The position numbers and the translations under genes are program-made. From positions 64,220,400-64,284,399 of the forward strand of contig OY992537.1 of NCBI GenBank assembly GCA_963921195.1: 64,000 bases of DNA, given 5' to 3'. The first letter of the stretch is position 1; every line of letters starts with the position of its first letter. Origin of the DNA: Pegoplata infirma. Its lineage: Eukaryota > Arthropoda > Insecta > Diptera > Anthomyiidae. Positions 6,321 through 64,000 of the stretch are shown here, one piece after another. The notes beneath the pieces were generated by a model, which worked only from the letters and a program-made list of their open reading frames with translations, was not told where the DNA came from and did not search any database.

Positions 6321-6371
6321 ATGATAAATGATCTTTATAAAAAATATTTTGAGTGATACTTATTTTTGGGT

Positions 6372-14046: not shown

Positions 14047-16758
14047 TTAGGGTGGCGCAAATAAAGACTTTTTTCGAATTTCGTCAATTGCCGTACAAAT
14101 TTCTATTTTTTTTTATTCCCTCCAACCACACTCAATTTGTGATTCAATGTATAACGCATCAAAATATCAATCAGGGACCCCATAAAGTATATATATTATT
14201 GATCAGTGATCGATTCTGCACTCAAAAAATGCCTACGAATTTTGTACTCCTGCGCAAAACATTAAATCATGATAATGTGTTGCTGAAGATTTGGGTGTAC
14301 TTGCCAAAGCAAAGTTTTTTTTTTAGAAAAAATAATGTTATATTCATTTGACATTGCATGCAAAACAAATTGAAATATCGATTGAGGACCCCATTAAGTT
14401 TATATATTATTGGTCCATTTCTAAGACACTCTAGCTATATATATCCGTCTATCTGTGTGTGGAATGCAAGATGCAGTTCTAAAATTTTGTTAATGAGTGT
14501 ATTCCTTAATTGCAAAAAAGTGTTTTTACATTTTAGAGAGTATAAAAGATTCATCACGGATTAATTTACCACTCTCACTTGTTTTTTGTACATTTGTTAA
14601 ACAAATGGAACATTTTTATGTCAAAAGTTTAGACTTGGTATAAAAGTAGTTTTGGTAAAAAAAAGGAAAAAAATATTTTTTCACGAAAAACACAATTATG
14701 TTAAAACAAAATTTGATGAAAACAAAATTTTTGGTGAAAAAAAATTGATAAAAAATTTTTTTTGATGAAAAAATAATTGTTGATGAAAAAAATTACAAAA
14801 TAATTTTTTTTTTTAAATCAAGAAAAAAAATTTGATGAAAAAAAAATTTGATGCAATAACAACAAGTTTGATGAAAAAAAAATTGATGTAAAAATAAAAA
14901 TGGTCAAAAAACTTGACGAAAAAAAAATTAATGAAAAAAAAATTTATGAAAAAAAATTAATGAAAAAAAAAATGTAATAAAAAATTTGATAAAAGAAAAA
15001 AACTAATGAAATTTTTTTTTTTTTTTGAAAAAATAATTATGTATGTTAACTTTTATTCACCAGCTGGTGAAAAATGGGTTAATGCCACTAGAGATAGCAA
15101 ATGAAAGAGGAGAATCTCCCCAAATGTTCCTATTTTTTACTTTTACATAGCAGGAAAAAGGAGGTAAGTTACGTTCTTTCAAAAATGTTCCCTTCAATAT
15201 GACTCAAAATTTTCAACAAAATATTTTGATAAAGTTTTCAAATGACTTTATTCACATTATTTTATCATGATATGAGTTAAAACACCTCAATTCAACCGAA
15301 AAAAGTAGAGTTTTTGACCTTACCCCTTTCGAATTTGATGAAACTTGGAATGTTGTTGGGCCCTTACAAAAAAATCATAGTGCCAAAATTTTGGACTTCT
15401 GGTACATTTTCTTCCCGAGATATGGGGTCTTGAAAATTGGCAAAATTGTATATATTTGAGAAAAGTGTTCTGAGATAAATAAAGATAACTCGAAAAGTAA
15501 TTACAATACACGTCTCAGTCAGGTCGCAAATAATAGGTAATAAGACAGCCTTTAAAATGGCATTCCCCAAGATTTTTTTTTGAAAAAGGTCAAAGGTCAT
15601 TGGTTTTAACCTTAATTTTTGGAGAGCTATATCTCAAAAAACGATATTTTTAAAATTTTGGAAAAAATATATGTGATTAAGAATCATCTATACTACTTAA
15701 GTTTAAATTTTCAGGATGGAGACTTCATTGGAACTTTTTATATTAATAGAAACGTTGTGACAGGAAAGAAAAAGCGGTGTAATTTCCCTTAGAAAAAAAA
15801 TTTTTTTTTTTTTGACTTTGAAATTCTGGTACCAAAATTTATTTTTCTGAATGTTTTTGACGTGCTGAGTCCAAATATGACCTTTGAACTGGCCTATCGC
15901 TATTAGTTTTCGAGACATCTGCACATAAATATGTGAAAATTGCTAAAATGCTATTGCTGTGATATTTTTGAAAATTTAGGTGCATATATCTTGAAAAGTA
16001 ATAGCAATAGGCCAGTTCAAAGGTCATATTTGGACTCAGCATGTCAAAAACATTCAGAAAAATGAACTTTGGTACCAGCATTTCAAAGACAAAAAAAAAT
16101 ATTTTTTTTCTAAGGGAAATTACACCGCTTTTTCTTTCCTGTCACAACGTTTCTATTAGTATAAAAAGTTCCAATGAAGTCTCCATCCTGAAAATTTAAA
16201 CTGAAGTAGTATAGATGATTCTTAATCACATATATTTTTTCCAAAATTTTAAAAATATCGTTTTTTGAGATATAGCTCTCCAAAAATTAAGGTTAAAACC
16301 AATGACCTTTGACCTTTTTCAAAAAAAATCTTGGGGAACGCCATTTTAAAGGCTGTCTTATTATCTATTATTTGCGACCTGACTGAGACATGTATTGTAA
16401 TTACTTTTCGAGTTATCTTTATTTATCTCAGAACACTTTTCTCAAATATATACAATTTTGCCAATTTTCAAGACCCCATATCTCGAATACTGTAAATACT
16501 GTAAAGTAAACATCAGTACTTAATTTCATTAAATTTTGAGGGGGTGCGGTCAGCTCCTCGGTTGAAGTGAGGTGTTTTAGCTCATATGGCAAAATAAAAA
16601 AATTAAAAAATTAGGAGACATCGTCCTCTTTCATTTGCCATCACTAGTGGCATTCTAGGAGTCTTAAAAAAAAAAAAAAAAAAAAATTGGCTGTAGGACG
16701 GTGTAATTTGCTAAGCAATCGTCGAAATGCGAAAAAGTCAATAATCGTGCCACCCTAA
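14047..16758. mobile_element. Foldback element with TTAGGGTGGC ends and long inverted arms
   Basis: The outer ends are inverted: TTAGGGTGGCGC near 14047 and GTGCCACCCTAA ending 16758, and the similarity continues inward through ACTTTTTTCG and CAATTGCCG. The main arms are 15081-15930 and about 15985-16655, highly similar, including ATGCCACTAGAGATAGCAAA (left), against TTTGCCATCACTAGTGGCAT (right), and TCACAACGTTTCTATTA against its complement. The loop of about 60-80 bp is near 15930-15990. The outer left arm is interrupted by a REP-A copy at 14216-15080. Non-coding. A partial direct copy of its interior lies at 17731-18105. Confidence 0.8.
14216..15080 (+). mobile_element. REP-A modular repeat, truncated copy
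   Basis: Opens with ATGCCTACGAATTTTGTACT, AACATTAAATCATGATAATG and GTGTACTTGCCAAAGCAAAG. A stretch related to DINE (GACCCCATTAAGTTTATATA), the TATAAAAGATTC module and the TTCACGAAAAACACAATTATG module follow. Then comes a long GATGAAAAAAAATTT simple repeat (14715-15040) and the palindrome TTCACCAGCTGGTGAA near 15057-15072. The far-end module seen in other copies (ACTGAGGTGGCGTCCTGCA) is absent. Non-coding. Confidence 0.7.
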
Positions 16759-17730: not shown

Positions 17731-18105
17731 AACATCTCAATTCAATCGAAGGGTTGACCTCACGCTCTTTTTTTTTTTTTTTAAGTCAAAGGTCATTGTT
17801 TTGACCCTAAATTTTGGAAAGCAATTTTTAAATTTTGGCAAAAATATGTGTTGTTAAGGATCCCCTATACTACTTTAGTTGAAATTTTCAGAAAGGAGAA
17901 TTAAATATTAAAACAAACACAGTGACTGAAAAAAAAAAACCTGGTGCTAAAATGCACTTTACTTAAAGTTTTTTACGTGCCGAGTCCAAATGTGATCTTT
18001 GAACTGGTCTATCTCTGTTAGTTTTTGAGATATAAGAACATAAATGTATAAAAATTGCTAAAATTGAATTGCTGTGTTTTTCGAACATTTAGGTGCAGAT
18101 TTCTC
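17731..18105 (+). repeat. Partial direct copy of the 15.6-16.0 kb inverted-repeat arm
   Basis: Follows the order of 15580-15990: TCAAAGGTCATTG.TTT, then TATACTACTT.AGTT, then GTGCCGAGTCCAAATGTGA, TTTGAACTGG.CTATC and ATTGCTAAAATTG. It is more diverged than the two arms are from each other, so it is an older copy. Confidence 0.7.
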
Positions 18106-18260
18106 AAAAACCAGGCGTGGATCCAGGGCGGTGGCAAATCGGATTTCTTCCCCCCCCCCCCACCACCCCTAATCGATTTCAAAAAAAAGGACAAAAGAAA
18201 AAATGGACATGATGTAAAAACTCCTTTGGAGAGATATATGTGTGCTTATGATTTATGAAC
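18106..18260. other. Short GC-rich transposon end-like segment
   Basis: Contains AGGCGTGGATCCAGGGCGGTGG and a poly-C tract, unlike its AT-rich surroundings. It looks like one end of an unrelated DNA element, but the matching end is not visible. Confidence 0.35.
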
Positions 18261-20157: not shown

Positions 20158-20837
20158 AACAAGTAAAAAAGTTAAATTCGGCCTTGCCGAATGTAGTGAT
20201 ACCCCCCACAATTTCAAAAAGATTATTGCAAAAAACTTTATTTAAAAAGAAATTACTTTTGAAAAAAAAAAAATTTTTTGAAAAAAAATTTCCGCGAAAA
20301 AAAATTTTGTTAAAAAAAATCCGCGATTTTTTTCTTTTTTTGTCAAAAAATATATTCGTACCTGTTTAAATACCATTTGGTGTTCAATTATGTTCACATA
20401 TGTCAACCAGAAGCCGAATTAAAGCATTTTGTATTTTTAGGTTATGTTGAATGTACTGAAATTTTTGAGGTGTGCTTACATTTTCGTTCATAACTTTTGA
20501 ACCGCTGAATCGATATCGCTCAAATGCAATACCAAACTTCTCGGGAGAACTTCCAATAAACATGTTAAGTTTCAGTCATCTCTGTGCAATATTTTGTCCG
20601 CGACAGCATTTTCCACAGACAGACAGACAGACAGACAGACGGACAGACGGACAGACGGACAGACGGACAGACGGACAGACGGACAGACGGACAGACGGAC
20701 ATCGCTAGAATGTCTTAAAATCGATCGGGCATCATGAATATATATACTTTATGGGGTCCCAGATCGATATTTCGATGAGTTACAAACGGAATGACAAACT
20801 TATATATACCCTCTATCACTAAGTGGAGGGTATAAAA
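20158..20837 (+). mobile_element. DINE-like element, copy A
   Basis: Starts ACAAGTAAAAAAGTTAAATT, then CGGCCTTGCCGAATG and a GATACCCCCCAC module. In the middle comes CGTTCATAACTTTTGAACCG, then a GACA/GACG microsatellite, then the CATCGCTAGAATGTCTTAAA segment. It ends with CACTAAGTGGAGGGTATAAA. The two termini share an inverted GGAGGGTAT/ATACCC module. The same sequence is at 27201-27800 and 45488-46126. The layout fits dipteran mini-me/DINE (Helentron-related) elements. It inserted within the REP-A copy. Non-coding. Confidence 0.78.
20616..20702. repeat. GACA/GACG tetranucleotide microsatellite
   Basis: About 85 bp of GACA and GACGGACA units. It makes a spurious reading frame of Gln-Thr-Asp-Arg repeats. 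Shorter versions are in the sister copies at 27637-27662 and 45944-45985, so length varies between copies. Confidence 0.92.
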
Positions 20838-24440: not shown

Positions 24441-26575
24441 TTTTTTTTGTGTTTCTATAGAAAAATTCTCAGATTCTGAAAAATTCTTTATATAGAGAAA
24501 TTCTGAGACATTTATTGTATATAAAAGTTCTCAGATTCTGAGACATTTTTTGTATAGAAAAATTTTCAGATTTTAAGAAATTTTTTAATAGAAAATTTCT
24601 CAGATTCTGAGACATTTAATCTGTAGAAAAATTCTCAGAATCTGAGACATTTTTTCTATAGAAAAATTCTCTGATTCTGATACATTTTTTCTATAAAAAA
24701 ATTCTCAGATTCTGAGACATTTTTTCTATAGAAATATTCTCAGATTCTGAGACATTTTTTCTATAGAAATATTCTCAGATTCTGAGACATTTTTTCTATA
24801 GAAAAATTCTCAGATTCTGAGACATTTTTTCTATAGAAAAATTCTCAGATTCTGAGACATTTATTCTATAGAAAAATTCTCAGATTCTGAGACATTTATT
24901 CTATAGAAAAATTCTCAGATTCTGAGACATTTATTCTATAGAAAAGTTCTCAGATTCTGAGACATTTTTTCTATAGAAAAATTCTCAGATTCTGAGACAT
25001 TTTTTCTATAGAAAAATTCTCAGATTCTGAGACATTTTTTCTATAGAAAAATTCTCAGATTCTGAGACATTTTTTCTATAGAAAAATTCTCAGATTCTGA
25101 GACATTTATTCTATAGAAAAATTCTCAGATTCTGAGACATTTATTCTATAGAAAAATTCTCATACTCTGAGACATTTATTCTATAGAAAAATTCTCAGAT
25201 TCTGAGACATTTATTCTATAAAAAAATTTTTCAGATTCTGAGACATTTTGTCTATAGAAATATTCTCAGATTCTAAGACTTTTTTTATAGAAATATTCTC
25301 GGATTCTGAGACATTTTTCAATAGAAAAATTTTCAGATTTTGAGACATTTTTTCTATAGAAAAATTTTCAGATTCTGAGACAATTTTTCTATAGAAAAAT
25401 TCTCAGATTCTGAGACATTTTTTCTATAGAAATATTCTCAGATTCTGAGACATTTTTTCTATAGAAAAAATTTCAGATTCTGAGACATTTATTCTATAGA
25501 AAATTTCTCAAATTCTGAGACATTTTTTCTATAGAAAAATGTCACAGAATCTGAGAATTTTTCTATAGAAAAAATATCTCAGAATCTGAGCCTTTTTTTA
25601 AGAAAAATTCTCAGATTCTGAAACATTTTTTCTATAGAAAAATTCTCAGATTCTGAGACATTTTTTCTATAGAAAAATTCTCAAATTCTGAGACATTTTT
25701 TCTATAGAAAAACTCTCAGATTCTGAGACATTTTTCTATAGAAAAATTCTCAGATTCTGAGACATTTTTTCTATAGAAAAATTTTCAGATTCTGAGACAT
25801 TTTTTCTATAGAAAAATTTTCAGATTCTGAGACATTTTTTCTATAGAAAAATTTTTAGATTCTGAGACATTTTTTCTATAGAAAAATTCTCAGATTCTGA
25901 GACATTTTTTCTATAGAAAAATTCTTAGATTCTGAGACATTTTTTCTATAGAAAAATTTCAGATTCTGAGACAATTTTTCTATAGAAAAATTATTAGATT
26001 CAAAGACATTTTTCCTATAGAAAAATTTTCAGATTCTGAGACAATTTTTCTATAGAAAAATTCTCAGATTCTGAGACATTTTTTCTATAGAAATATTCTC
26101 AGATTCTGAGACATTTTTTCTATAGAAAAAATTTTAGATTCTGAGACATTTATTCTATAGAAAAATTCTCAGATTCTGTGACATTTTTTCTATAGAAAAA
26201 TTCTCAGATTCTGAGACATTTTTTCTATAGAAAAATTTCAGAGTCTGAGACAATTTTTCTATAGAAAAATTATTAGATTCAAAGACATTTTTCCTATAGA
26301 AAAATTTTCAGATTCTGAGACAATTTTTCTATAGAAAAATTCTCAGATTCTGAGACATTTTTTCTATAGAAATATTCTCAGATTCTGAGACATGTTTTCT
26401 ATAGAAAAAATTTTAGATTCTGAGACATTTATTCTATAGAAAATTTCTCAAATTCTGAGACATTTTTTCTATAGAAAAAATGTCACAGAATCTGAGAATT
26501 TTTCTATAGAAAAAATGTCTCAGAATCTGAGCCTTTTTTTAAGAAAAATTCTCAGATTCTGAAACATTTTTAAAT
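24441..26575. repeat. 35 bp palindromic minisatellite, CTCAGATTCTGAGA type
   Basis: About 60 units of about 35 bp. Each has TCTCAGATTCTGAGAC and TTTTTCTATAGAAAAA. Units near the centre (24700-25200) are almost identical, while the ends are diverged. Higher-order structure is visible: a variant pair (AATTATTAGATTCAAAGAC) occurs at 25990 and again near 26270. A block with inverted units (GTCACAGAATCTGAGAA) occurs at 25545 and again at 26480. The CTATAG half is shared with the array at 1-4577. Non-coding. Confidence 0.95.
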
Positions 26576-26963: not shown

Positions 26964-28114
26964 TAGGTATGAGATTTTCATGCACTAAAAAATCGAAAAT
27001 ATGCGCTTAAAATATGCGCTAAAAAACTCAAAATATGCACTAAAAAACCTAAAAATATGCACTAAAAAATAAAATGTGTGCCACAAAAATTTTGTTGTCA
27101 TAGAAAAAACAACTTAAAAAGTAACTCCGATTTTAAATAGTACCGTTTAAAACTTTATATAAACAAGGTTTATTTAGATATTAAGACAATCTGTAAAAAA
27201 ACAAGTAAAAAAGTTAAATTCGGCCTTGCCGAATGTAGTGATACCCTCCACAATTTCAAAAAGATTATTGCAAAAAACTTTATTTAAAAGGAAAAAAAAA
27301 AAATTTTTTTTGAAAAAAAAATTTTCGCGAAAAAAAATTTTGGTAAAAAAAATCCGCGATTTTTTTTTTGTGTTCGTACTTGTTTAAATACCATTTGGTG
27401 TTCAATTATGTTCACATATGCCAACCAGAAGCCGAATTAAAGCATTTTGTATTTTTAGGTTATGTTGAATGTACTGAAATTTTTGAGGTGTGCTTACATT
27501 TTCGTTCATAACTTTTGAACCGCTGAACCGATATCGCTCAAATGCAATACCAAACTTCTCGGGAAAACTTCCAATAAATATGTTAAGTTTCAGTCATCTC
27601 TGTCCAATATTTTGTCCGCGACAGCATTTTCCACAGACAGACGGACAGACGGACAGACGGACATCGCTAGAATGTCTTATAATCGATCGGGCATCATGAA
27701 TATATATACTTTATGGGGTCCCAGATCGATATTTCGATGAGTTACAAACAGAATGACAAACTTATATATACCCTCTATCACTAGAGTGGAGGGTATAAAA
27801 ATTGAAAGAAAAAAAATAGTTTTTCTTATTTTCAAAATAAATTTTAAAAATTTAAAATAGTTTTTGAAGCAAATAAATTTCAATTTGTGTTTTTGCTAAT
27901 TTATGCCAAAATATGCAAAAATATGCACTTAAAAGTTGGAAAATTGCACAAAATATGCATTTAAAATATGCAAAAATATGCATTTTCACCAAAATATGCA
28001 AAAACAAATCGATGCCATTTTAACGCAAATTTCCTAATTCGGAAAGATAATTAGTCAATATAGTTTTTAGACTATCGACAAAAAACATGCATTTGCATGG
28101 AAATCTCATCCCTA
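26964..28114. mobile_element. hAT-like MITE copy carrying a nested DINE-like element
   Basis: Begins TAGGTATGAGATTTTCATGC and ends GCATGGAAATCTCATCCCTA. The 8 bp TTGATCAG lies directly on both sides (26956-26963 and 28115-28122), a perfect target duplication. Its body matches 2605-3153. A DINE-like element occupies 27201-27800, so the MITE arrived first. Without the insert the length is about 550 bp, like the first copy. Confidence 0.9.
27201..27800 (+). mobile_element. DINE-like element, copy B
   Basis: Same start, middle and end as copy A (20158-20837), with a short GACG/GACA run at 27637-27662. Ends CTAGAGTGGAGGGTATAAAA. It sits inside the hAT-like MITE at 26964-28114. Confidence 0.78.
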
Positions 28115-28325
28115 TTGATCAGTGATCGATTCTAGGACATTCTAGCGATATCCGTCTGTCTGTCCGTCTGTCTGTTTGTGGAAAATGCGATCACAGCCAA
28201 AAGATTAAACATATATGAATAAAGCTTAACATTTTCACTTGTAGTTTTCCCGAGAAGTTTGGCATTGCATTTGAGCGATGTCGGTTAGGCGGTTGAAAAG
28301 TTATACCCGAACAAACTTTTCTGTA
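28115..28325 (-). mobile_element. DINE-like fragment, inverted
   Basis: GATCGATTCTAGGACATTC, the GTCTGTCTGTCCGTCTGTCTG run near 28155-28175, then GTTTTCCCGAGAAGTTTGGC and TTGAGCGATGTCGGTTAGG. Continues the DINE segment interrupted by the MITE before it. Confidence 0.65.
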
Positions 28326-28544: not shown

Positions 28545-30613
28545 AACATGATAATGTTTTTAGGCTGGTGTCTAATTTTAAAAAAAGTTGCAGGACGCCA
28601 CCTCAGTTTGACTATATAAGCTAACAATTAACGAAAAAGAAAACAAGAATTACTATTTTCATTTTTTTTAAACCAAAAATTTTAATAACTTGGGTTTGTA
28701 ACTTGGATAATAATTCACCTCGTGGTGAATAAAACCGTTTTTCACCAGCTGGTGAATAAAAAGTAACATAATTAATTTTCAACAAAAAAAATTTTTTTTT
28801 TCCATCAATTTTTTTTTTATCAAATTTTTTTTCATCAATTTATTTTTTTTTCATAAAATTTTTTTCATCATATTTTTTTTCATCATTTTTTTTTATAATT
28901 TTTTTTTTTTATCAATTTTTTTTTTTTTCATCAAGTTTTTTTTTCATCAAATTTTTTTTTCATTAAATTTATTTTTCATCAAATTTTTTTTTTCATCAAT
29001 TTTTTTTTTTTTTACATTAATTTTTCATCAAATTTTTTTATACCCACGACTCTAGTGATAGAGGGTATATATAAGTTTGTCATTCCGTTTGTAACATTGG
29101 TCTAGGACCCCATAAAGTATATATATTCATGATCCTCGATCGATTTTAAGTCGATCTAGCGATGTCCGTCCGTCTGTCCGATGTCCGTCCGTCTGTCCGT
29201 CCGTCTGTCCGTCCGTAGAAAACACGCTAACTTTTGCAAGACTTTACAGAGGCTACTGGAGGTTGGCATATATATTGGTCATTTACCTGGTCAGGTTGGT
29301 ATTGCAATCCAGCCAAATCGGTCCAGTAGTTCAAAAGTTATGAGCAAAAGAGTAAATTTCGGCAAGGGTTGTCGCGAATTTACGAGATAAAATACACGAT
29401 AACTTTCGAAAGACAATAATGAGACTGCTAAGACGTGGCATGTGTATTTGCCGTTCCCCAGGTCTGTTTTTTTATTGAATTTCAGCTTAATCCGTTCAGT
29501 GGATCAAAAGTTATAAGCAAAACCCCAAATTTCAGATTGGGTTCATCTTAAATGCCACGTTGTAATCAAGTTTTAAAAGCATTGGTGGTAACTTAACAAT
29601 GCTTTTCAAACTTGTTTAGTTTTAAAGCAATGCTTTTTAAAATTGTTTAGTTTTAAAAGCATTGGTAACCTAAAAATTACACTCGAAAAAAATTTTACAC
29701 TTAAAAAAAATTTTACACTCAAAAAAAAAATTAGTTTTATTTACAAAAATATCATTATTTTGTGTACATACGTACGTGCATTCACTCAAAAATATTTTAA
29801 CAGTAAAAAAAACATTACACTCGAAAAAAGTTTTACACTCAAAAAAAATAGTAATTTTTCTTTTTTTTTTTTAAATGACAAAAAAAGAGTTTTTTACTCA
29901 AAATAAAATATTTCTAATCAAAATTGTTAATTTTTTTCACGTTAAAAATGTACTATCCTTTAAAAAAAAGGCATGTGGGGGGTATTCATAGATTCGGCAA
30001 AGTCGAATTTAACTTTATTACATGTTTTTTTATTATTTTTTTCATCAAATTTTTTTTTCATCAATTTTTTTTTCCATCAATTTTTTTTTCCATAAATTTT
30101 TTTTTTCATCATTGTTTTTTTTTTCATCAAACTTTTTTTTCACTTATTTTTTTTTTCATAATTTTTTTTTTTTATCAATTTTTTTTCATAAATTTTTTTT
30201 TATCATATTTTTTTCATCAATTTTTTTTTCATAAAATTTTTTATCATCAATTTTTTTCTCACCAAAAAATTTTTTTCTTCATATTTTTTTTCATCAATTT
30301 TTTTTACATCAAAAAATTTTTCTTTTCATCAAAAACTTTTTTTCATCAAAATTTTTTTTCACCAAAAATTTTGGGTTCATTAAATTTTTTTTAACATAAT
30401 TTTGTTTTTGTGAAAAAAAAAAATCATTTTTTTTACCAAATCTACTTTTTCACCAAGTCTAAGCTTTTCGCATAAAAATTTTCCATTTGTTTATCAAATG
30501 TACATAAAACAAGTGAGAGTGTTATATTCTTTGGTGCCGAATCTTTTATACTCTCCAAAATGTAAAAACACTTTTTTGCACTTAGTTTTGCACTCACTTA
30601 CGAAATGTACAGC
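28545..30613 (-). mobile_element. REP-A modular repeat, inverted copy with DINE insertion
   Basis: Reads, on the minus strand, from the AGTGAGTGCAAAACTAAGTG and TATAAAAGATTCGGCACC modules through AATATAACACTCTCACTTG, TTTTCACCAAGTCTAAGC (complement of the genuine order), the GATGAAAA tract, TTCACCAGCTGGTGAA, TTCACCACGAGGTGAA and GCGTCCTGCAAC, to AACATTATCATGTT. It keeps the uninterrupted AATATAAC site where copy 18618-21935 has the hAT insertion. A DINE-like element splits its simple repeat. Confidence 0.7.
29039..30026 (-). mobile_element. DINE-like element, inverted copy
   Basis: Begins TATACCCACGACTCTAGTGA (plus strand), then GTTTGTCATTCCGTTTGTAAC, GACCCCATAAAGTATATATA, the GATGTCCGTCCGTCTGTCCG run at 29162-29215, and a TTACACTCGAAAAAA region. 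Ends with GATTCGGCAAAGTCGAATTT. Longer than copies A and B because of extra material at 29540-29940. Confidence 0.7.
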
Positions 30614-33825: not shown

Positions 33826-35170
33826 TTTTAAAATTTAGCTCGAGTTTTTTTTTATGGCCCACTGAAGTTTTTAATTATTTTTCAAAGGAGTTTAGAATAA
33901 GTAAAAAAAAAATTATTAAATTTAATTTTGAGCTAAATGAGGTTAAGAGATGTGCAACGAAATTTGATGACGGTTTTTTTCTTAGAACATATTAACCCTC
34001 TATCTCCCATTTTTAGGGGTCACTTTAGTCCCTTTTCCAAATATCGTCGTAGAACACCACTTACACTTGCTTTTAAATGGTTAACATGTTCTAAAAAATT
34101 TTTCTGCATAGAATTTCATTGTTAGTTGTAAAAGACCAAAAATTCGTGAGATATAAGCAAAATGCTTAAAAAAGTAAAATTTTTAATTATCATATATTGT
34201 TAAATTGTGATTCACCACAATTGAAATAATTCGACAAAATATAACAAATGTACTTCTGAGCCTAATACTGTTAATAGCTATCTTCGGTAAAATTTTATGT
34301 TTCTTTTTTCTTAAAATATATTAACCCTCTATCTCCTTTTCTCAGGGGTCATTTCAGTCCCTTTTTTAAATATTCTTATAAAAAAACACTTAAACGTGCG
34401 TTTAAAGTGTTAAAACGTTCTACAAACATTTAATAGATATCTTTAATCATTCCAAACCCATTAAAAAAAAAGTAAAGACTTCAATGGGCCATAAAAAGAA
34501 CTCGAGCTAAATTTTCAAAACAATTCGTTTTTGGTTTACAAATGGTATACCTTCATTTTTTGTTTTGTTCAATTTAAGATACACTATGTGACCTCAAATT
34601 TGTTGCACAGTGTATTCTATTGAAGCTTTAAGTTATGTGAAATAACTCTTAAATTATAAATTATATTCAAGGAACTTTAAAAAAGTAATTTAGTATTACG
34701 CTTTAACCTTTAAACGCTCGTTTTATTAAATTTTATAAAAATATTTTAAATAAGGACTAAAATGACCCCTTAAAATGGGAGATGGAGGGTTAATATGTTC
34801 TAACAAAAGAACCGCCATTAAATTTCACTGAAGACACCTTAAGACATTTTTTATCTCAGTAGTATTTTTAGTACATTTTTTCGACCTATTTCAGTCTACT
34901 TTGGTAAAAGCTATTTAACAATATATGATACTTTACAATTTCGCTTTTTAAAGCATTTTGATTATATCGCACGATGTTTTGGTATTTGACAACCCCTAGT
35001 GAAATTTGATGCTTAACATTTTTGTAGAACATTTTAACTATTAAAACGCACATTTTAGTGTTGTTCTATGAGGATATGTTAAAAAAGAACAAAAATGACC
35101 CCTAAAAATGGGAGATAGGGGGTTAATGTATTCTAAAAAACGAACCGCCATCAAATTTTACTATAGATAT
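33826..35170. repeat. Repeat cluster with ACCCTCTATCTCC modules in both directions
   Basis: The module CCCTCTATCTCC..TTTTAGGGGTCA occurs directly at about 33992 and 34323, and inverted at about 34770-34795 and 35098-35125. The first part is bracketed by inverted ends AATTTAGCTCGAG (33831) and CTCGAGCTAAATTTT (34501), with ATGGCCCACTGAAG against CTTCAATGGGCCAT. Together it looks like overlapping foldback elements. Non-coding. Confidence 0.65.
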
Positions 35171-35271
35171 GGAAGGATTCCAAAATTTTTGAAAACAAAA
35201 AAAACACTTTTTCGACCTTACCTATTTTAGTTTGCATAAAAATTGGCATATCAATTCTCGAGATCTGTGTC

Positions 35272-37400
35272 GAATTTCGGTTTTTGTTATTTAGTCAAAA
35301 TTGTGAATGGTTCGCGTTTTATCGCTGTTCAAAGTTGGTATTTTGCAACAATTTAATGAAAAATACATGATGTTTAAATGATCGTATCTTTGGAACGCAT
35401 CATCCGATTGTCAGGAAATAAAGCGCAAAATAATGGTTATGTCCTGGTCTTAAAATAGAATTTTGAAAAAGGATAGGATGCTTTGCAAAAAGGATATTGA
35501 AATTAAAAAAATGTCCTTAATTTGCAAATATCTCAAAATGCGTATCTTTAATTTTCCTATATTTTTTTGCACATATAGCCCTAAATATACTTAACAACAT
35601 ATGCAAATCCCAAATTGGGATGGTAAGCGGTTTAATTATAAACGTGGTTTCCTTAAACGACTTATTGATTTTTGTTAAATAACTCTTGTTTACAAATGAA
35701 AAACAATTTCAGAGCAGTAACCGCGACTTTTTTTATATGCATTTTGGACCGCTAAACTCAAAAATTTCATCAAAAGAACATTTCGCGAATAACTTTTTGT
35801 TTAATGAATTTTTTAGCGTTTTTTGGAGGTATTTTGACTATTTTTCTTATATCTTAAGTTCTGTTTATCTGATTCTCTCGCAATAAAAACCAAATTAAAG
35901 ACAATCAAATTTCCAACAAATCCTACATTCATCGTTTTTCCATCAGTTCATAGGTTTACACGCAAATAAATTTTTTAGCGTTATTTGGAGGTATTTTGAC
36001 TGTTTTTCTTATATCTTGAGTTCCGTTCACCTGATTTTTTCGCAATAACAACCAAATTAAAGACAATCAAATTTGCAACAACATATGTTAATCCTAAATT
36101 GGAGTGATGAGAAGTTTAAGAAAAATCGTGTTTTTTTTAGGTGCATAATTCATTTTATTAATTTTTTAAATTTAATTTTTTTTTTAATTTATCAAAAAAA
36201 AAATATTTTTTTAAACTAAGATAAAATGTATTGCTTAACAACAGTCATCTGATTTAATCCGTGTGTTTTATATTTTAAATAATAATTGTAAAAAAAATAA
36301 TGAATTTTGTGTGGAAGCAGATTTTTCTGAAAGTTATACTTTTACCAGTGTTCAAGAAAATAAATCTTACAACTAGACAAACAACCAAGCGCCAATACAT
36401 GCATTTAAAGTGTATTTTAATTGGAAGAATGCAAAACAAAACCTACAACTTTAATAACACTGTGCAACAAATTTTGATAAATTAAAAAAAAAAATTAAAT
36501 TTAAAAAATTAATAAAATGAATTATGCACCTAAAAAAAACACGATTTTTCTTAAACTTCTCATCACTCCAATTTAGGATTAACATATGTTGTTGCAAATT
36601 TGATTGTCTTTAATTTGGTTGTTATTGCGAAAAAATCAGGTGAACGGAACTCAAGATATAAGAAAAACAGTCAAAATACCTCCAAATAACGCTAAAAAAT
36701 TTATTTGCGTGTAAACCTATGAACTGATGGAAAAACGATGAATGTAGGATTTGTTGGAAATTTGATTGTCTTTAATTTGGTTTTTATTGCGAGAGAATCA
36801 GATAAACAGAACTTAAGATATAAGAAAAATAGTCAAAATACCTCCAAAAAACGCTAAAAAATTCATTAAACAAAAAGTTATTCGCGAAATGTTCTTTTGA
36901 TGAAATTTTTGAGTTTAGCGGTCCAAAATGCATATAAAAAAAAAGTCGCGGTTACTGCTCTGAAATTGTTTTTCATTTGTAAACAAGAGTTATTTAACAA
37001 AAATCAATAAGTCGTTTAAGGAAACCACGTTTATAATTAAACCGCTTACCATCCCAATTTGGGATTTGCATATGTTGTTAAGTATATTTAGGGCTATATG
37101 TGCAAAAAAATATAGGAAAATTAAAGATACGCATTTTGAGATATTTGCAAATTAAGGACATTTTTTTAATTTCAATATCCTTTTTGCAAAGCATCCTATC
37201 CTTTTTCAAAATTCTATTTTAAGACCAGGACATAACCATTATTTTGCGCTTTATTTCGTGACAATCGGATGATGCGTTCCAAAGATACGATCATTTAAAC
37301 ATTATGTATTTTTCATAAAATTGTTGCAAAATACCAACTTTGAACAGCGATAAAACGCGAACCATTCACAATTTCGACTAAATAACAAAAACCGAAATTC
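35272..37400. repeat. Long inverted repeat, about 926 bp near-identical arms
   Basis: Left arm 35272-36197 and right arm 36472-37400 are inverted copies, separated by a 274 bp loop. By eye only a few substitutions separate them: A/G near 35305, A/T near 35360, G/A near 35372, G/C near 35418. Both arms also hold a shorter direct repeat, CTTAAGTTCTGTTTATCTGA / CTTGAGTTCCGTTCACCTGA, within each arm. There is no long reading frame. The loop has no recognised gene. A transcript through it would fold into a hairpin of over 900 bp, so it is either a young foldback or a hairpin RNA locus. Confidence 0.92.
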
Positions 37401-38666
37401 AATAAAAATCAGAAGAATGGATATATTAATTTTTGGATAAATTGAACCACCATCGGCTGATTGCCTATGCTATTTAAAATGGAACCAGTCTATGTATAAA
37501 CATTATGTAGCTCAGAAGTTGATTTAATACATTTCTTTGACCTTTTTTAGACGACTTTAAAAATAAAAATAAATTATTTTCCAAAAAAGGATGTTTTTAT
37601 ATTTTCCACACTGCTAATCCGATTTTGCCCAAATTTGGCATTAATATATATCTAAGGAATATTAAATTGCTTACAAAGTTTTTTTACGATCGGACAATTT
37701 TTGTAGGTGTTAAAGCGTTTCAAAGAAAAAGGATATATGGCAGGACCTTGAGTCCTTGCTCCGATTTAAGTGAAAATTTACACACACGTTGTTAGTGGAA
37801 TGTGCATCAGCATGACCACTTTTTGTAATTTTTTGTGCATTATTGAAGCTAAAATTACATTTTTCAATTTCAGAACACATGGGAGGTAGGCGTGTCCTTG
37901 CACCGATTTTTCCAAAAAATCATATTTTTCTTAACTAATATATTTTATGTTAGTGTACCAAATCTCAAAAATATCTGACAACTCCTTCTAATTTTGTCCC
38001 TTCGTTACATGGGAACGAAGCACTGTGGGGCGGGCCTAAAAAAAATTGACAAAAACCCTGTCCGACTTTTTAATTTTACGAACATAACATGCCTGTGCTA
38101 ATAAAAAATCTTCGTGCCATTCAAAAAAATTCTTTATCAAAAAGCGGTTAAGATCTTTAAAAGAAAAGCTTGTGTGAAATTTTTATAATTTTTTTTTATA
38201 AAAAAAAATCGTACTGAGCATAAACTGTGAAAACACATCATCACAAATTTAATACTTTATCTTTAAAAAAACATCATAATAAATACAAAAAGTTGCCATT
38301 CAATTTATGAAAGTGTAAATTTTATTGGAAATAAACTTTTCACATTATAACATTAATATGAGACAATTCATAACTTGATGAAATTTACAGGACTGCTGCA
38401 GGGAACATTGACAGTAATTGTTAAAATATTAAAATTTAAAAAGTATGAAAGTTATAGTCAAGACAGGGAATTCTGAAATTTTGATTCACAATTAGGGTCC
38501 CATGGGGTCTCCAGATGGGGTCACCAAAATATCTAAAGAAATTTTTCCTTAAGTTTGGAAAACTCTCTTGATTATGATATGGATTCAAATAAAGTCAATA
38601 AAATAAAAAAAAAATTAAAAATTTGTTTCTTTAGAAAATTTTTAGAACTTACGAACATTTTTGACT
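37401..38666. other. Gene-free stretch
   Basis: AT-rich, with short GC-richer phrases such as GGCAGGACCTTGAGTCCTTG. No coding sequence, terminal repeat or tandem array recognised. 38490-38530 (AGGGTCCCATGGGGTCTCCA) recalls the repeat debris at 32.3 kb. Confidence 0.35.
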
Positions 38667-40350: not shown

Positions 40351-40880
40351 GGAAGTCTCCCTGGTGTCACCTTCCGATCTTCAAGAAATTCGGATATGTT
40401 GTTAAGAACGAAAATTAATTCGACACGTATTTTTTTTTAGCGGCCCAAACTCATTTTTAGGGGGGGTCTATTTGTATGGGGGGAAATGGATTTTTTTCAT
40501 GTGTGCATGAAATGTGTGGTATCAGATTAAAGGTATTAAAAATACCTATCTCGTGGTGCTAACCACGGGCCAAAGAAGTTAATATTTTTCGATTTATTAA
40601 CAAAAATGTCCTAAAATTTTGGTATTTTACTCAATATGACGAAAAGTTGTGCATGTCTGGACACGTTCTTATAGGTTTTCAAAAGACCTTTCATTTGGTA
40701 TGTAACATGACTATAAACGAAAAAAAACTGAAAAATGTCCTTGTCTTCTCCCCTCCTTTTTACCCCCTAAATATGAATTTGGGCCGCTAAAATAAATACG
40801 TGTACCTTTATTTTTTCTGCTCTACAAAATAAAACCAATTCCATAAAGATCCGCGGGTGACACTAGGGAGACTTCCCTTG
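40351..40880. mobile_element. Foldback MITE, TTA-flanked
   Basis: Ends CAAGGGAAGTCTCCCTGGTG on the left and its inverse CACTAGGGAGACTTCCCTTG on the right. The flanks are TTA on both sides, which would suit PIF/Harbinger-type insertion, though this is weak. The arms extend inward through CGTATTTTTTTTTAGCGGCC (left) and GGCCGCTAAAATAAATACG (right). Non-coding. It sits directly against the left edge of the LINE that follows. Confidence 0.72.
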
Positions 40881-43484
40881 TTAGTTAACAACAGACGCTT
40901 TGTTCTCCGGCTCCTCATTTCAGGAGATAGAAAAAGTACCAAAGTACAATTTTTTACCCCTCTAAAATCAGTATTCCTAAAAAGTCCTATATTTCATTCT
41001 GTTCTGGCTTCTTCACCTTGCACTCTGGGATACCTGAAAGATCCTAATGGGGTGTGGTCTTCCTCCAGTGGAGAGTCGCTGGATCTCCTTTTAAACACGC
41101 ATTTTCCTGGCAATTCCATGACGCCGTTTCAAGCTTTGGAACGTTCTGACGCCCAAGCATCTGAAATTGCTTCGGAAATAATATTTATTAATAATATAAA
41201 CATTAATCTGGGCGATAAAAAGCTAAAAAGCTTCAGGCCCTATAAGTCTCCGGGACCTGATGGTATAATCTCGGCTGAGTTGCAGCAAGTGTCGGACTAT
41301 ATAGCCCCGCTGTTGTATAATCTATACACAGCATGCATCAACTGGTCGTATATTCCTTTAAAATGGAGGGATACCAGAGTCGTCTTTATTCCGAAGGCTG
41401 GGAAAAGTTCCCACACAGCTCCGAAGGATTTCAGACCAATTAGTCTGTCTTCTTTTTTGTTAAAGACAATGGAACGAATGAAAGACTCATATTTGCGTAG
41501 AGTGATTGACCCGGGGTTGCTTTCCACAAAGCAACATGCATACAGCAAGGGTAGATCAACGGAAACAGCTCTGCATGAGCTCGTTGGTACCATCGAGAGA
41601 TCGCTTTCGGTAAAGGAGTACACTACGGTGGCCTTTCTTGATATAGAGGGGGCTTTTAATAATGTCATCCCAGACTCGATAATTTCGGCATTGTATGGTC
41701 TGAAAGAAAAGCGTGGGATCGTTTTAATGGTGGAAAACTTACTTGCCAATAGACGTATAACGTCTGAATTGGGAGCGTCCGTCATATCTCGATTTGTCAA
41801 TAGGGGCACACCACAAGGAGGAGTTCTATCGCCGCTTCTTTGGAACCTGGCACTGAATTCAATGCTGCTTTCCCTAGAAGCACGTGGTTGTCATGTTGTC
41901 GCATATGCTGACGATGTCGCGATAGCGGTAAAGGGGAAGCATCTGCCAACATTGAGGGACATTCTTCAGGGTTCTCTGAAAGAGTTAATCCAAGTAAAAC
42001 GGAGATTGTTTTGTTTACAAGGAAAAATAAGATTCCTGCTTTTGATCCTATTTCTCTGCACGGCACTGAAGAGCCAAGATGCTTGGCTCCATCTGAGAAG
42101 GTGATCAGGTGTCATATTGAGGAACGGGTGAGAAAAGCAACGATTGCTTTATATTCCTGTAAAAGGGCCATTGGAAAACGATGGGGTTTTAGCCCTCAAG
42201 TCGTTCATTGGATCTATACAGCAGTGGTGCGTCCAATTTTGCTGTATGGAGTCATTGTCTGGTGGCCTGCTTTAGAAACAAAAGCGAACTGTGTCTTTAT
42301 CACAAAGGTACAGAGAATGGCGTCGATGTGCATCACTGGTGCTCTTCGTACAACACCTACGGCTGCATTAGAAATCCTCCTTCACCTGATACCATTGGAC
42401 ATATTGGGTAGGCAGTATGCGGCTGCGTCGGCAATTCGACTTAATAGCACGCTGCAATGGAGGAGCAGCGATTGTGGCCATAGCGCGATCTTGAAGAAGA
42501 TAACAATACCACAAAATGTGGACTGTGCTCCCTCTTTGAGCCTCTTTGAGCGCCACTTTACCACTATGATACCATCCAGGGAGTCTTGGATGGGGGACAT
42601 TCCGGGTAGTGGAGCCACCATAAATTTTTACACAGATGGATCGAGGCTGCACGAACAAGTGGGATTTGGAGTCTATTCAGAAGATTGAGCCTGGCTCGAA
42701 GATTGCCAGATCATTGCAGTGTTTACCAATAAAGATGCTGGCAATAAAGGAAGTGGCTGACTGGTTGAGCTGCAATGTCTTGTCTACAACCGCAGTCAAC
42801 ATCTATACTGACAGTCAAGCCGCGGTAAATTCCCTGGATTCAATGTTTCTGAAAACAAGATCTGCCCTTAACTGCCGCACGTCTTTAAATGAGATGGCCA
42901 AGCAGTTTAACATACGACTCATATGGGTCCCAGGGCATAGAGACATTCCAGGGAATTGCAAAGCCGATGAGCTTGCAATAATAGGAACTACCTTACAAGT
43001 TCCAACAGAATTGGAATGTGTTGGTATGCCTCTAGAAACTTGCAAGCAAAACCTACGGCTTTGTTCTGCGACGGAGACTAATCAAAGATGGGCAAATGGA
43101 TGGACGTGTGAGACAACACGACTGATTTGGCCTTCTCTTAATCAGGGGCGCACAAGTGAGCTGATATCGCTTCCAAGAGGAGAGATTTCGACGGTGGTTT
43201 CTATAATTACCGGACACTGTCTTATAGGGAAGCACGCAGAGCGGTTAAATGTGCCGGTTAAATGTGCGGTTAAATGTGCGAATGACTTTAGCCGAAGTTG
43301 CATGGATTAAGAGGAGTTGGAAACTATCGAACACTTTATTTGCCATTGCCCGGCACTTTCTGGTCAGAGACTTGCTTCACTTCGATCTAGGGAGCTGTAC
43401 GACATTTCTGATTTGTCGGATGTCAAAATTCAACATCTAAGGAGTTTCATAAGAAGCTCAAACTGGTTTAACGACAGGAACTAG
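40881..43484 (+). pseudogene. Non-LTR retrotransposon (LINE) with RT and RNase H, decayed
   Basis: 5' truncated; no endonuclease is seen. The RT core runs from about 41015 to 42000: LGYLKDPNGVWSS, SPGPDGI, DFRPISLSSF, FLDIEGAFNNV (motif A), RGTPQGGVLSPLLWN (motif B) and YADDVAI (motif C with the catalytic Asp pair). A frameshift and small deletion lie near 41970, before VNPSKTEIVLFT. The connecting region continues to 42600. RNase H starts with TDGS near 42632; after another shift near 42690 come TDSQAA and WVPGHRDIPGN with the ADELA end. The expected Glu segment is damaged. A final Cys/His knuckle (about 43290-43370) is split by a stop at 43308, and coding ends at 43484. The motifs fit the I/R1/LOA group of insect LINEs carrying RNase H. 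It would copy RNA into target-primed DNA if intact; this copy is dead. Confidence 0.88.
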
Positions 43485-45939: not shown

Positions 45940-45977
<38 letters not shown>

Positions 45978-46126
45978 GGACAGACGTACATCGCTAGAAT
46001 GTCTTAAAATCGATCGGGCATCATGAATATATATACTTTATGGGATCCCAGATCGATATTTCGATGAGTTACAAACGGAATGACAAACTTATGTATACCC
46101 TCTATCACTAAGTGGAGGGTATAAAA
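45488..46126 (+). mobile_element. DINE-like element, copy C
   Basis: Same modules as copy A, from ACAAGTAAAAAAGTTAAATT to CACTAAGTGGAGGGTATAAA, with a GACA run of about 40 bp at 45944-45985. Confidence 0.78.
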
Positions 46127-46945: not shown

Positions 46946-47290
46946 AAATGAGGAATAGAGTTGGAGAAAGAATGAAATATAAATGAAGCTCTTTTGATGA
47001 GACCCCATCTAAAACAACACGTATAGTGCGGTTTTTTGTAAAATCGTGAGAAGTCGTTACCGACATCGATCGTAATTTTTACTCTCACCCAAAATGATGG
47101 AGCGACCAACTTGAACATTCCGAAAGAAACGACAAGGAAGCCAAATAGTCGGCAAAACTGCCGCCCGGTATGAGGATTTGAAAAGATTTGCCAATGGTCG
47201 TCTTAACGCCGAAGAGCACCGGGTTAGCATCAGCGCTGTTATTCCATCCAGCCCCTGTGGCTTGTTCACGTTGAGATCTGCAAGAAATCC
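46946..47290 (-). pseudogene. Reverse transcriptase fragment, opposite strand
   Basis: On the minus strand, 47290 down to about 47130 encodes NVNKPQGLDGITALML, then RRPLANLFKSSY and PTIW. This is the segment of non-LTR reverse transcriptase that normally precedes the NYRPI motif. The frame decays after PTIW and ends at about 47057. It lies head to head with the RT at 47291-49171, whose preserved part begins at NNYRPI. This is what a 5' inversion by twin priming would leave, but its worse state of preservation could also mean an unrelated older element. 46946-47050 is unassigned. Confidence 0.6.
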
Positions 47291-49171
47291 GATTGCAACA
47301 ACTATAAATCCGATTGCAACAACTATAGACCAATCGCAATACTACCAGTGATTGAGAAAATACTAGAAGAAATTGTAGTTCGAAGAATCACTGAATACTT
47401 AGGCAAATATAACATCATAAATGGAAACCAATATGGATTTCAAAAAGGGAAGAGTATAAATAAGCTACTAGGCAACTTTACGAACCATATCAGCAACTGT
47501 CTTAGTAAAAGTCTCAACTGTCTAGTATTATTTATAGACTTCAGCAAAGCATTTGATACTCTATCTCATACACAACTTATTGAAGTGCTAGAACGAAATG
47601 GTATCAGAGGAAATACTTTGCAATGGTTTAAAAACTATCTAGAGTGCAGATCATACCGCGTTAAGATAAATAATAACCTCAGCAACGAAACTCCCTCTGA
47701 ATGGGGTGTACCTCAGGGATCTAAACTTGGCCCAATAATGTATATCATTTATGCAAACGAAATGATCACCTCATTACAGAATACTAATACATTTGCCTAC
47801 GCGGACGACACTGCCATTGTCATATCTCACAAAAACATAGATGTTGCCACAGTACAAATGCAAAATCAATTGGACATTGCAGCAAAATGGTGCCATGATA
47901 ATGGGCTAATCATCAACGCATCAAAAACAAAAATTATGCATATAAGGCCGAACCATATAAGATACACAGACATAAATTTAACATATCATGACACTGATTG
48001 TCTTCACAATACAGCCAACAACATATATAATTACAATGATACTTGTTCTACAAAAATTGAACTAGTAAACTCCTATAAATATCTGGGAGTACACGTCGAT
48101 AATCATTTTAACTGGAATATACATGTAAAAAACTTGCAAACAAAACTAAGGAAATCAGCATTTATGTTATACCACCTAAGCAACTGTGCAACATATAGCG
48201 TACTAAGGCAAGCGTATTTCTCCTTAGCTGAATCGTATATTAGGCATGGGATAACGGCATGGGGAAGCGCAACTTACTGCGGAGCGCTCCAGAAGACTCA
48301 AAACCGGATATTAAAAATTCTTTGGAACAATCATCGATTCTCGTTAAACAGCAAGAACGTCCTACAAAACAATATAAGCAACAACTCCACTAATAACACA
48401 AACCGCAACATTAACATTAACAACAACCTAAATAGCAACACTCAAAACAACATTGTCAACGAAATAAACAGCAACTTAAACACTATACAGCACAGTGGCA
48501 ACAACACCACATACAACAACACCACCGTTAATAACAACATAATTGTCAACAACACCAGCAACAACAATACAAACCTGATCAACATCGGGACAAATAATAA
48601 TAATAATAATAACAATGTTAACATCACACAACACATTGAAAACAACAACATCGCTATCAACCACAACACCGACACCAACCACACCAGCAACATCAACACA
48701 ACAACCCACACGATGAACATAATCGTCAACAACAACATCAGCAACAACAACACAACAAACCACAACATCAGCAACAACCAAACAACAAGCCACACTGCTG
48801 ACAACAATACTTCTAACACCAATAGAAACATCAATAACACTCCCAAAACCAAAACAAACTCAAACATCGACTCAAAAGATATTGCCAAAGAATTACACAT
48901 TCTCAACATAAAAAGTATTTATCACACAACACTCGCAAACGAGTTTAACAACGATCCACGATTCTTCCAAGTCATCAACCATGCATACAATACAAGACGG
49001 CGAGCTGAGGGAAGATTCAAGGTAGAGAGTTTCAAAAATAATTATGGAAAAAATACACTAAATGTTATAATGCCAACAATCTTTAATAAATTGCCAGTAG
49101 AATTAATCAATATTAGAAATAAGCACAAAATGAAAAAAGGTCTCAAAGACCACTACATAAATTCGCAATGA
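47291..49171 (+). CDS. Non-LTR reverse transcriptase, long open frame with Asn-rich insert
   Basis: The frame is open for about 620 codons. Motifs in order: NNYRPIAILP (about 47318), GFQKGKSINKLL, FIDFSKAFDTL (motif A), GVPQGSKLGP (motif B), FAYADDTAIV (motif C, catalytic Asp pair), NASKTKIM and YKYLGVHVD. The wording suits the CR1/L2/Rex-type branch rather than the RNase H LINEs nearby; I cannot place it more closely. From about 48358 to 48850 the protein becomes a low-complexity tract dominated by Asn with Thr, Ile, Ser and His. Normal LINE C-terminal sequence resumes after it, to a stop at 49169-49171. The 5' part is missing or inverted, and a 21 bp direct duplication (47285-47305 and 47306-47326) marks the junction. 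The 3' UTR ends in AATAAAG and a 30 bp poly(A). Confidence 0.85.
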   Translation, partial: DCNNYKSDCNNYRPIAILPVIEKILEEIVVRRITEYLGKYNIINGNQYGFQKGKSINKLLGNFTNHISNCLSKSLNCLVLFIDFSKAFDTLSHTQLIEVLERNGIRGNTLQWFKNYLECRSYRVKINNNLSNETPSEWGVPQGSKLGPIMYIIYANEMITSLQNTNTFAYADDTAIVISHKNIDVATVQMQNQLDIAAKWCHDNGLIINASKTKIMHIRPNHIRYTDINLTYHDTDCLHNTANNIYNYNDTCSTKIELVNSYKYLGVHVDNHFNWNIHVKNLQTKLRKSAFMLYHLSNCATYSVLRQAYFSLAESYIRHGITAWGSATYCGALQKTQNRILKILWNNHRFSLNSKNVLQNNISNNSTNNTNRNININNNLNSNTQNNIVNEINSNLNTIQHSGNNTTYNNTTVNNNIIVNNTSNNNTNLINIGTNNNNNNNNVNITQHIENNNIAINHNTDTNHTSNINTTTHTMNIIVNNNISNNNTTNHNISNNQTTSHTADNNTSNTNRNINNTPKTKTNSNIDSKDIAKELHILNIKSIYHTTLANEFNNDPRFFQVINHAYNTRRRAEGRFKVESFKNNYGKNTLNVIMPTIFNKLPVELINIRNKHKMKKGLKDHYINSQ

Positions 49172-62319: not shown

Positions 62320-63336
62320 ACACTATAAATTATTTTGAAGTCCCTTACTGTCGCAATAGAAAATTGGAAATGGAAAGAAGGTATAAGAAGTTTGGAGGCC
62401 GAGTTACTAGTTGAAGAAAATTTAACCATGCGGAGCTACGTTAAGCTCGCTCAACTTGGAGGGGAGCGCATATACACCACCCTAACGCTTTCACTACGGT
62501 TCCAACACTACAAACTATTTTGAAAACGCTTACTTTCGCCATAGCAAATCGAAATGAAAAGAAGGTTTGATCAGTTTTAATGTTGAGTAACGATTTGGGA
62601 AGGACAACGTTTTTACTTGCAATTACAAGAAATCTGTTAATAAGCGAAATCGACAACCTGGCACATTGTCGCCATGATGTAAATTTACATGAAAAAAATG
62701 TTGGAAAAGGTAAGCTTTCATTAATATGTATTTGAATTTTAAAATCATGTTATAATTTTTTCCAGTTCATCGTCATAACAAGTTTAAGCGTGGACATTTT
62801 ATTCCAAAACAAGATCATATTCAAAATGAGTAAATGTAAATACGTCGCAAATACAATATTATTTAGTAATTTGATGTTGAAGAAAATTAAACTACGCAGC
62901 TTCGTTAATCTCGTGCAACTTGGTGGAGAGGTCATATGCACCACCATAATGTTGTCACTACGATTGCAATACTGCAAACTATTTTAAAAACCATTAATGT
63001 CGCCATAGCAAATTGGAAATGGAAAGATCGTATAAGCAGTTTTAAGGCCGAGTTAAGTTAAGCTCACTCAACTTGGAGAAGAGGACATATGCACCACCAG
63101 AAATGTTATCAATACGATTCCAACACTATAAATTATTTTGAAATCCCATACTGTCGCAATAGCAAATTGGAAATGGAAAGAACGTATAAGTTTGGAGGCC
63201 GAGTTACTATTTAAATAAAATTCAACCATGAGGAGCTACGTTAAGCTCGCTCAAGATGGAGGAGAGGGCATATGCACCACCATAACGTTATCACTACGGT
63301 TCCAACACTACAAAATATTTTAAAATCGCTTACCCC
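62320..63336. repeat. Family of 150-200 bp imperfect repeats
   Basis: Repeating order: AACACTACAAACTATTTTG, CTTACT.TCGCCATAGCAAAT, TGGAAATGGAAAG, GGCCGAGTTA, CGCTCAACTTGGAGG and CACCACCATAACG. Partial or full units start near 62325, 62505, 62880, 62970, 63120 and 63290, and another follows the foldback at 63796. Another block, GACAACCTGGCACATTGTCG, appears at 62651 and 63886. Short frames are not conserved between units. No gene recognised. Confidence 0.65.
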
Positions 63337-63795
63337 CAGCAAAAAAAGTGCGTAGTACTTCTATTTGGAGTGCTTTAAAACTACAACAAATGTAATGAAA
63401 TACAACAAAAATAACAAAAAACACAAGAAAAAAACACACAAACAGTTTTTTCTACTCCATAAAAAGTTGTTATTCAGCACTTAACTCATTACCTTCCGCG
63501 ACACTCCCATACAAAAGTAAGTAGATATTCAGTAGATAAGAAGTACTCCGAGCTTTCAAACAACTTCCAACTACTTCCACGGAGTAGTTCTTATCTACTG
63601 AATATCTACTTACATTTGTATGGAGGTGTCGCGATAGGTAATGAGTTAAGTGCTGAATATCTATGTATTCTGGACTAAAAAAAAACTGTTTGTGTGTTTT
63701 TGTCTTGTGTTTTTTGTTATTTTTGTTGTATTTCAATACATTTGTTTTAGTTTTAAAGCACTCCACTGAGAAGTGGTAATGACTTTTTTGGCAGG
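63337..63795. mobile_element. Small foldback MITE, nearly palindromic
   Basis: Left half 63337-63565 and right half about 63590-63795 are inverted copies: CACTTAACTCATTACC against GGTAATGAGTTAAGTG, GTAGATATTCAGTAGATAAG against CTTATCTACTGAATATCTAC, and GGAGTGCTTTAAAACTA against TAGTTTTAAAGCACTCC (last one partly mutated). Termini resemble CCCNGCCAAAAAAGT. It interrupts the repeat family, which resumes after it. Confidence 0.8.
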
Positions 63796-64000
63796 GACGT
63801 ATCATCAGTTTTAAGGTTGAGTAACGATTTCGAAAAGACAACGTTTTTACTTACAATCACACGAAAGCTGTCAATTAGCGAAAGTGACAACCTGGCACAT
63901 TGTCGCCATGATGTAAGTAAAAATAGTTTCTTATCCCTATCCTTCAAACATCGTTACACACATAACCCAAAAAGATAAAATACGTACTACTAATATATTG
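63796..64000. repeat. Continuation of the 150-200 bp repeat family
   Basis: ATCATCAGTTTTAAGGTTGA, GTAACGATTTCGAAAAGACA, ACGTTTTTACTTACAATCAC and GACAACCTGGCACATTGTCG match 62571-62672. The sequence runs to the window edge. Confidence 0.6.

What the first reader, a model, noticed from the sequence alone, without database searches (positions are those of the whole stretch)
35272..37400. A young 2.1 kb hairpin with about 926 bp arms and no coding capacity
The two arms read as inverse copies with only a handful of substitutions by eye, far better preserved than any transposon around them. A transcript would form a very long double-stranded RNA. Long hairpins of this type feed Dicer-2 in flies (hpRNA/endo-siRNA). 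Either it is a recent inverted duplication or foldback insertion, or its pairing is maintained by selection or conversion. Its arms contain no recognisable transposon terminus. Of all features here this is the best candidate for something undescribed.
Basis: partly seen in the sequence, partly recalled or inferred. Interest (0 to 1): 0.8.

Follow-up and report, generated by a model that had tools for sequence, protein, structure and literature searches.

The report
Young-looking foldback repeat in fly DNA
A 2.2 kb stretch of fly DNA folds back on itself almost perfectly; it looks like one of many fold-back repeats in this neighbourhood, with arms probably kept alike by copying between them, and nothing found here shows that it makes a working RNA.

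Summary
The hairpin is real: arms 35238-36197 and 36472-37434, 274-bp spacer, 98.1% identical. The core (35272-36197 / 36472-37400) differs by 4 substitutions and 3 indel bases in two T runs. It has no evident coding capacity, and one RNA strand folds at -1534 kcal/mol.

It is not isolated. I analysed eleven foldback palindromes in the window, picked by eye; together they cover about 16% of it. One other is 95% identical, and an old one (74%) ends 79 bp before this hairpin.

Divergence is graded: 11 of 34 positions differ at the outer edge, 4 substitutions in the next 143 bp, none (but 3 indel bases) in the inner 783 bp. No target-site duplication was found. This favours an old foldback repeat whose inner arms were recently homogenised over a fresh insertion. 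The hpRNA reading has no positive evidence beyond the fold: no RNA data could be consulted and no target homology was found.

The host is probably a calyptrate fly. The genome search did not complete (12 tries), so copy number is unknown. Most likely an ordinary foldback-type repeat: new member of a known kind.

The parts
35238..35271 (+). Outer edge of left arm, diverged (23 of 34 positions match the right arm)
35272..36197 (+). Left arm core, 926 bp
   Evidence: all 4 substitutions lie at 35297-35414, none in the inner 783 bp, which holds the 3 indel bases
35803..35919 (+). Internal direct repeat, copy 1 (start-to-start spacing 162 bp)
   Evidence: 91% identical to copy 2
35965..36081 (+). 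Internal direct repeat, copy 2
36198..36471 (.). Spacer (loop), 274 bp, 25% GC, no protein-family match in the two frames scanned
36472..37400 (-). Right arm core, 929 bp, inverse copy of the left arm
36589..36705 (-). Mirror of internal direct repeat copy 2
36751..36867 (-). Mirror of internal direct repeat copy 1
37401..37434 (-). Outer edge of right arm, diverged
33960..35158 (.). Adjacent older foldback palindrome (arms about 74% identical) ending 79 bp before the hairpin; context, not part of it

Best explanation
A non-coding foldback-type repeat (long inverted arms, internal direct repeats, short unrelated middle), probably in a calyptrate fly. I think the inverted repeat is old, of an age with the degraded palindrome next to it, and that the inner 0.8-0.9 kb of its arms was recently made alike by arm-to-arm copying (gene conversion or template switching at the hairpin), while the outer edges, reached less often, kept diverging. 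The arm structure and the gradient are shown; the old age, the conversion and the transposon origin are inferred.
For: Divergence falls from 11 of 34 positions at the outer edge, to 4 substitutions in the next 143 bp, to none in the inner 783 bp; all four core substitutions falling in the outermost 143 bp has probability about 0.001 under uniformity, two-sided and post hoc. The outer 34 bp are more alike than 99.95% of random pairs, so the repeat once extended further, at a divergence (about 32%) like that of the adjacent palindrome (about 26%). Direct repeats inside one arm differ by 9% while their inverted partners match exactly. Eleven foldbacks were analysed in the window. No target-site duplication is visible, as expected for an old insertion.
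Against: Four substitutions are few, and the gradient test was chosen after seeing the data. The inner part is not perfectly alike: it holds the 3 indel bases. Of the other ten palindromes, comparing the outermost with the innermost fifth, 7 have the better-preserved outer end and only 3 the inner, so the gradient is not a general trend here. No second copy of the arm was found in the window and the genome could not be searched, so a transposon origin is unproven. The outer-edge similarity covers only 34 bp.
Confidence: 0.45

Rival explanations
1. A recent insertion of a non-autonomous foldback or long-TIR DNA transposon, its arms still near identical because it moved recently.
For: Architecture like described foldbacks: long inverted arms with internal repeats, a non-coding middle. 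Arm divergence of 0.43% gives about 0.2-2.0 million generations at a recalled fly mutation rate of 2.8e-9. The neighbourhood is rich in foldbacks.
Against: No target-site duplication: the longest exact word shared within 10 bp of the outer ends is 6 bp, at unequal offsets, and at the core ends 4 bp; 24% of 5,000 random junction pairs do as well as 6. Imperfect duplications were checked only at zero offset. The ends, which a transposase needs, are the most diverged part. No other copy of the arm in 64 kb.
Confidence: 0.25
2. A recent local inverted duplication of a unique non-coding segment by replication template switching or foldback repair.
For: No TSD and no second copy of the arm in the window; arms nearly identical.
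Against: The edge is graded with 34 bp of older similarity beyond it, whereas a fresh duplication should end sharply. Location among ten other foldbacks suggests a repeat-driven process.
Confidence: 0.15
3. An hpRNA locus: transcribed, diced by Dicer-2 into 21-nt siRNAs against a target gene or repeat, with pairing kept by selection.
For: One strand would fold into a duplex in which 949 of 960 left-arm bases pair symmetrically, with perfect runs of 313 and 448 bp. New hpRNAs do arise as inverted duplications in flies (PMC10317233, passages and section 12 read).
Against: No transcript or small-RNA data were available. Ten frames gave no credible Pfam family, two arm frames had no candidate homologue in a collection of about 5.8 billion proteins, and the arms matched nothing else in the window. 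The hpRNA arms described in the passages that I read carry target homology.
Confidence: 0.1
4. An assembly or library artefact joining an inverse copy of one segment.
For: The indels lie in T runs, where sequencing errors occur.
Against: A 274-bp unique spacer, four substitutions clustered at the outer ends, and extended older similarity are not what read-through or foldback chimeras usually give (recalled knowledge of such artefacts).
Confidence: 0.05

Closest known systems
Tetris foldback element of Drosophila virilis (PMC4079207: abstract, sections 10 and 17, and passages read)
   Same: Long non-coding inverted arms (up to 1,735 bp there), internal tandem repeats in the arms (about 220 bp there, 162-bp spacing here), non-coding middle
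   Different: Tetris has 8-10 bp target-site duplications and several copies; neither was found here, and copies could not be sought in the host genome. No sequence comparison was made.
Galileo / Newton / Kepler (P superfamily) of Drosophila (PMC2775673: passages read)
   Same: Long, internally repetitive inverted arms; copies without coding capacity
   Different: Galileo makes 7-bp duplications with consensus GTAGTAC; none seen here. Terminus sequence not compared.
'Unknown 6' repeat of Calliphora vicina (PMC3630058: passages read)
   Same: Palindromic repeat (92% over nucleotides 1-465) in a blow fly, 12 copies in the region of about 600 kb studied there, so such palindromes are not unusual in this kind of fly
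Drosophila hpRNA loci (PMC10317233: passages and section 12 read)
   Same: Inverted repeats that could form dsRNA, often evolutionarily young
   Different: Recognised by Dicer-2-dependent siRNAs and target homology; neither shown here

Membership tests
Foldback / long-TIR non-autonomous DNA transposon | Long inverted arms separated by a non-coding middle | tested here: met
Foldback / long-TIR non-autonomous DNA transposon | Internal direct or tandem repeats in the arms | tested here: met
   about 1.8 copies of a 162-bp period, 91% identical over 117 bp
Foldback / long-TIR non-autonomous DNA transposon | Target-site duplication | tested here: not met
   could have decayed if the insertion is old, so I file this as foldback-type by architecture, not as a proven transposon
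Foldback / long-TIR non-autonomous DNA transposon | Multiple dispersed copies in the genome | tested here: inconclusive
   none found in the 64-kb window; the genome search 'own' unanswered in 12 tries
hpRNA / endo-siRNA locus | Long inverted repeat able to form dsRNA | tested here: met
hpRNA / endo-siRNA locus | Transcription and Dicer-2-dependent 21-nt siRNAs | not testable with these tools
   no RNA libraries held
hpRNA / endo-siRNA locus | Arm homology to a target gene or repeat | tested here: inconclusive
   no match in the window, no credible Pfam family in ten frames, two arm frames without candidate homologue; host transcriptome not held
Galileo (P superfamily) | 7-bp target-site duplication, consensus GTAGTAC | tested here: not met
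   no exact shared word of 7 bp within 10 bp of either pair of ends

The most novel reading that the evidence does not exclude
A gene-conversion-maintained, transcribed long-hairpin locus of a calyptrate fly, in which arm-to-arm copying keeps a dsRNA precursor near perfect so that it keeps feeding the siRNA pathway.
Probability: 0.06. Interest if true: 0.65.

Novelty: new member of a known kind. Interest (0 to 1): 0.25.

Why it matters
If the graded identity does reflect arm-to-arm conversion, arm identity is a poor clock for foldback repeats, and 'young' hairpins in insect genomes may be old. If it were transcribed, it would be a long dsRNA source in a group of flies for which I read no hpRNA catalogue. 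As it stands it is mainly a caution: in this repeat-rich window a near-perfect hairpin is one foldback among several.

Tried and rejected
Coding or transposase remnant in the arms: no support. Copies of the arm or spacer elsewhere in the window: none found; shared complex 12-mers between the left arm and the rest of the window number 34, not above shuffles (mean 41.7; 165 of 200 shuffles reach 34). Relatives in other collections: no match in phages or plasmids and none for four arm patterns in viral contigs. One 21-base pattern hit 3 stretches of genome contigs; the best arm matches in them are that 21-22 base word itself, at the two places where the arm bears it, and the next best have E 0.016 or worse, which I take as chance. 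Low-stringency alignments of the flanks to each other and to the arms showed nothing secure: the left-flank repeat against the right flank scored 49, reached by 5 or more of at most 100 random pairs from the window, whose best was 101. The clearer match there is within the left flank, 34731-34943 with 35064-35279 (76.5). A relation of the right flank to the left-flank repeat (76% over 59 bp) is left open. Rfam: no match in the window at the gathering scores. Literature searches; only the four papers named in Closest known systems, plus PMC12076837 (passages), were opened.

Full report
Observation. Self-alignment of the region finds one dominant inverted pair: 35238-36197 against 37434-36472, 963 columns, 98.1% identical, with a 274-bp spacer. 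In the core there are 4 substitutions and 3 indel bases; the indels sit in a run of 7 against 9 Ts and in one of 10 against 11 Ts. One dinucleotide shuffle of the surrounding 6 kb gave an inverted match of at most 30 bp. The RNA of the + strand folds at -1534 kcal/mol with 949 of 960 left-arm bases paired to their symmetric partner; the longest perfect helices are 313 and 448 bp.

Content. The arms are 28% GC and the spacer 25%. The longest frame in the left arm, 67 codons, is ordinary for shuffled sequence of that composition. Ten frames from arms and spacer gave no credible Pfam family, and two arm frames had no candidate homologue in the protein collection. Each arm contains an internal direct repeat with a 162-bp spacing (117 bp at 91%) and a weaker 80-bp pair at 71%. 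The arms are therefore more alike than the repeats inside one arm.

Divergence is not even. The 34 bp just outside the core match at 23 of 34 positions, better than 99.95% of 200,000 random pairs drawn from the window. Inside, all 4 substitutions lie within the outermost 143 bp; the inner 783 bp have none, but do hold the 3 indel bases. Under even mutation the placing of the substitutions has probability about 0.001, a test chosen after seeing the data. Taken at face value, 0.43% divergence is about 0.8 million generations (0.2-2.0) at a recalled fly rate of 2.8e-9. If the arms have been converted, that is only the time since the last conversion.

Surroundings. The window is repeat-dense. I examined eleven foldback palindromes, this one included, chosen by eye from the list after setting aside tandem arrays; arm identities run from 69% to 98%, and with their spacers they take up 10,350 bp, 16% of the window. 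The second best is 15416-16485 at 95%. The palindrome 33960-35158, 74% identical, ends 79 bp before the hairpin. Some of these have further matches in the window (the 15416 arm near 17.8-18.1 kb); the hairpin has none at E 1e-4. Of the other ten, 7 have a better-preserved outermost than innermost fifth and 3 the reverse, so the gradient of this hairpin is not a general trend and has to be explained for itself.

Host. A reverse-transcriptase frame at 47228-49168 has, among the best 120 of 6,432 hits, its closest named relatives in Lucilia cuprina (68% identity), Stomoxys calcitrans (60%) and Calliphora vicina (70% over half the query); the top hits are unnamed. One of 62 frames scanned matches the CAP family and one RVT_1. 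The host is thus probably a calyptrate fly, with the caution that this rests on a mobile element; the species is not known.

Interpretation. The architecture (long arms, internal repeats, non-coding middle) is that of foldback elements such as Tetris and Galileo. Two features of a recent transposition are missing: a target-site duplication (longest exact shared word 6 bp near the outer ends, 4 bp near the core ends; 24% of 5,000 random junction pairs reach 6) and a second copy in the window. The outer ends are the worst-preserved part, the reverse of what recent transposition predicts. An old foldback whose inner arms were homogenised by arm-to-arm copying accounts for these together, and I place it first at 0.45. 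Recent insertion, local inverted duplication, a functional hpRNA and an artefact follow.

hpRNA. In the paper that I read in part (PMC10317233), hpRNAs are recognised by Dicer-2-dependent siRNAs, a primary transcript that rises in dcr-2 mutants, and arms that resemble a target. None could be shown here; the first two need RNA data. Pairing alone does not distinguish an hpRNA from any other foldback in the window.

Limits. Copy number, orthologous sites and transcription are therefore unknown, and these would decide between the readings. Palindromic repeats are already described in a blow fly: 'Unknown 6' of Calliphora vicina, 12 copies in the region studied, palindromic over nucleotides 1-465 at 92% (PMC3630058, passages).

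Noticed in passing
15416-16485: A 1,070-bp near-perfect palindrome (arms 95%, 23-bp centre) with diverged matches at about 17773-18111; its outer ends are better preserved than its centre.
   Followed up: partly
24452-26571: Tandem array of about 61 copies of a 35-bp unit; the array also matches its own reverse complement.
   Followed up: no
1-2606 and 3154-3868: Tandem arrays of a different 35-bp unit containing the self-complementary words TTATCGATAA and TTCTATAGAA; same period length as the array at 24452-26571.
   Followed up: no
20618-20701, 27636-27663, 28151-28175, 29164-29216, 45940-45985: Short GACAGACG / GTCC / ACAG arrays, resembling the GTCY-rich protosatellites described for a DINE-1-like Helitron of Calliphora vicina.
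   Followed up: no
40833-43310 and 47228-49168: Non-LTR-type retrotransposon frames: the first region has reverse transcriptase and RNase H matches in separate frames, the second a reverse transcriptase frame with a long asparagine-rich stretch.
   Followed up: partly
6368-7786, 58902-60002, 63320-63814: Further foldback palindromes with arms of about 230-450 bp and 85-86% identity; no exact shared word longer than 6 bp within 10 bp of their ends.
   Followed up: partly
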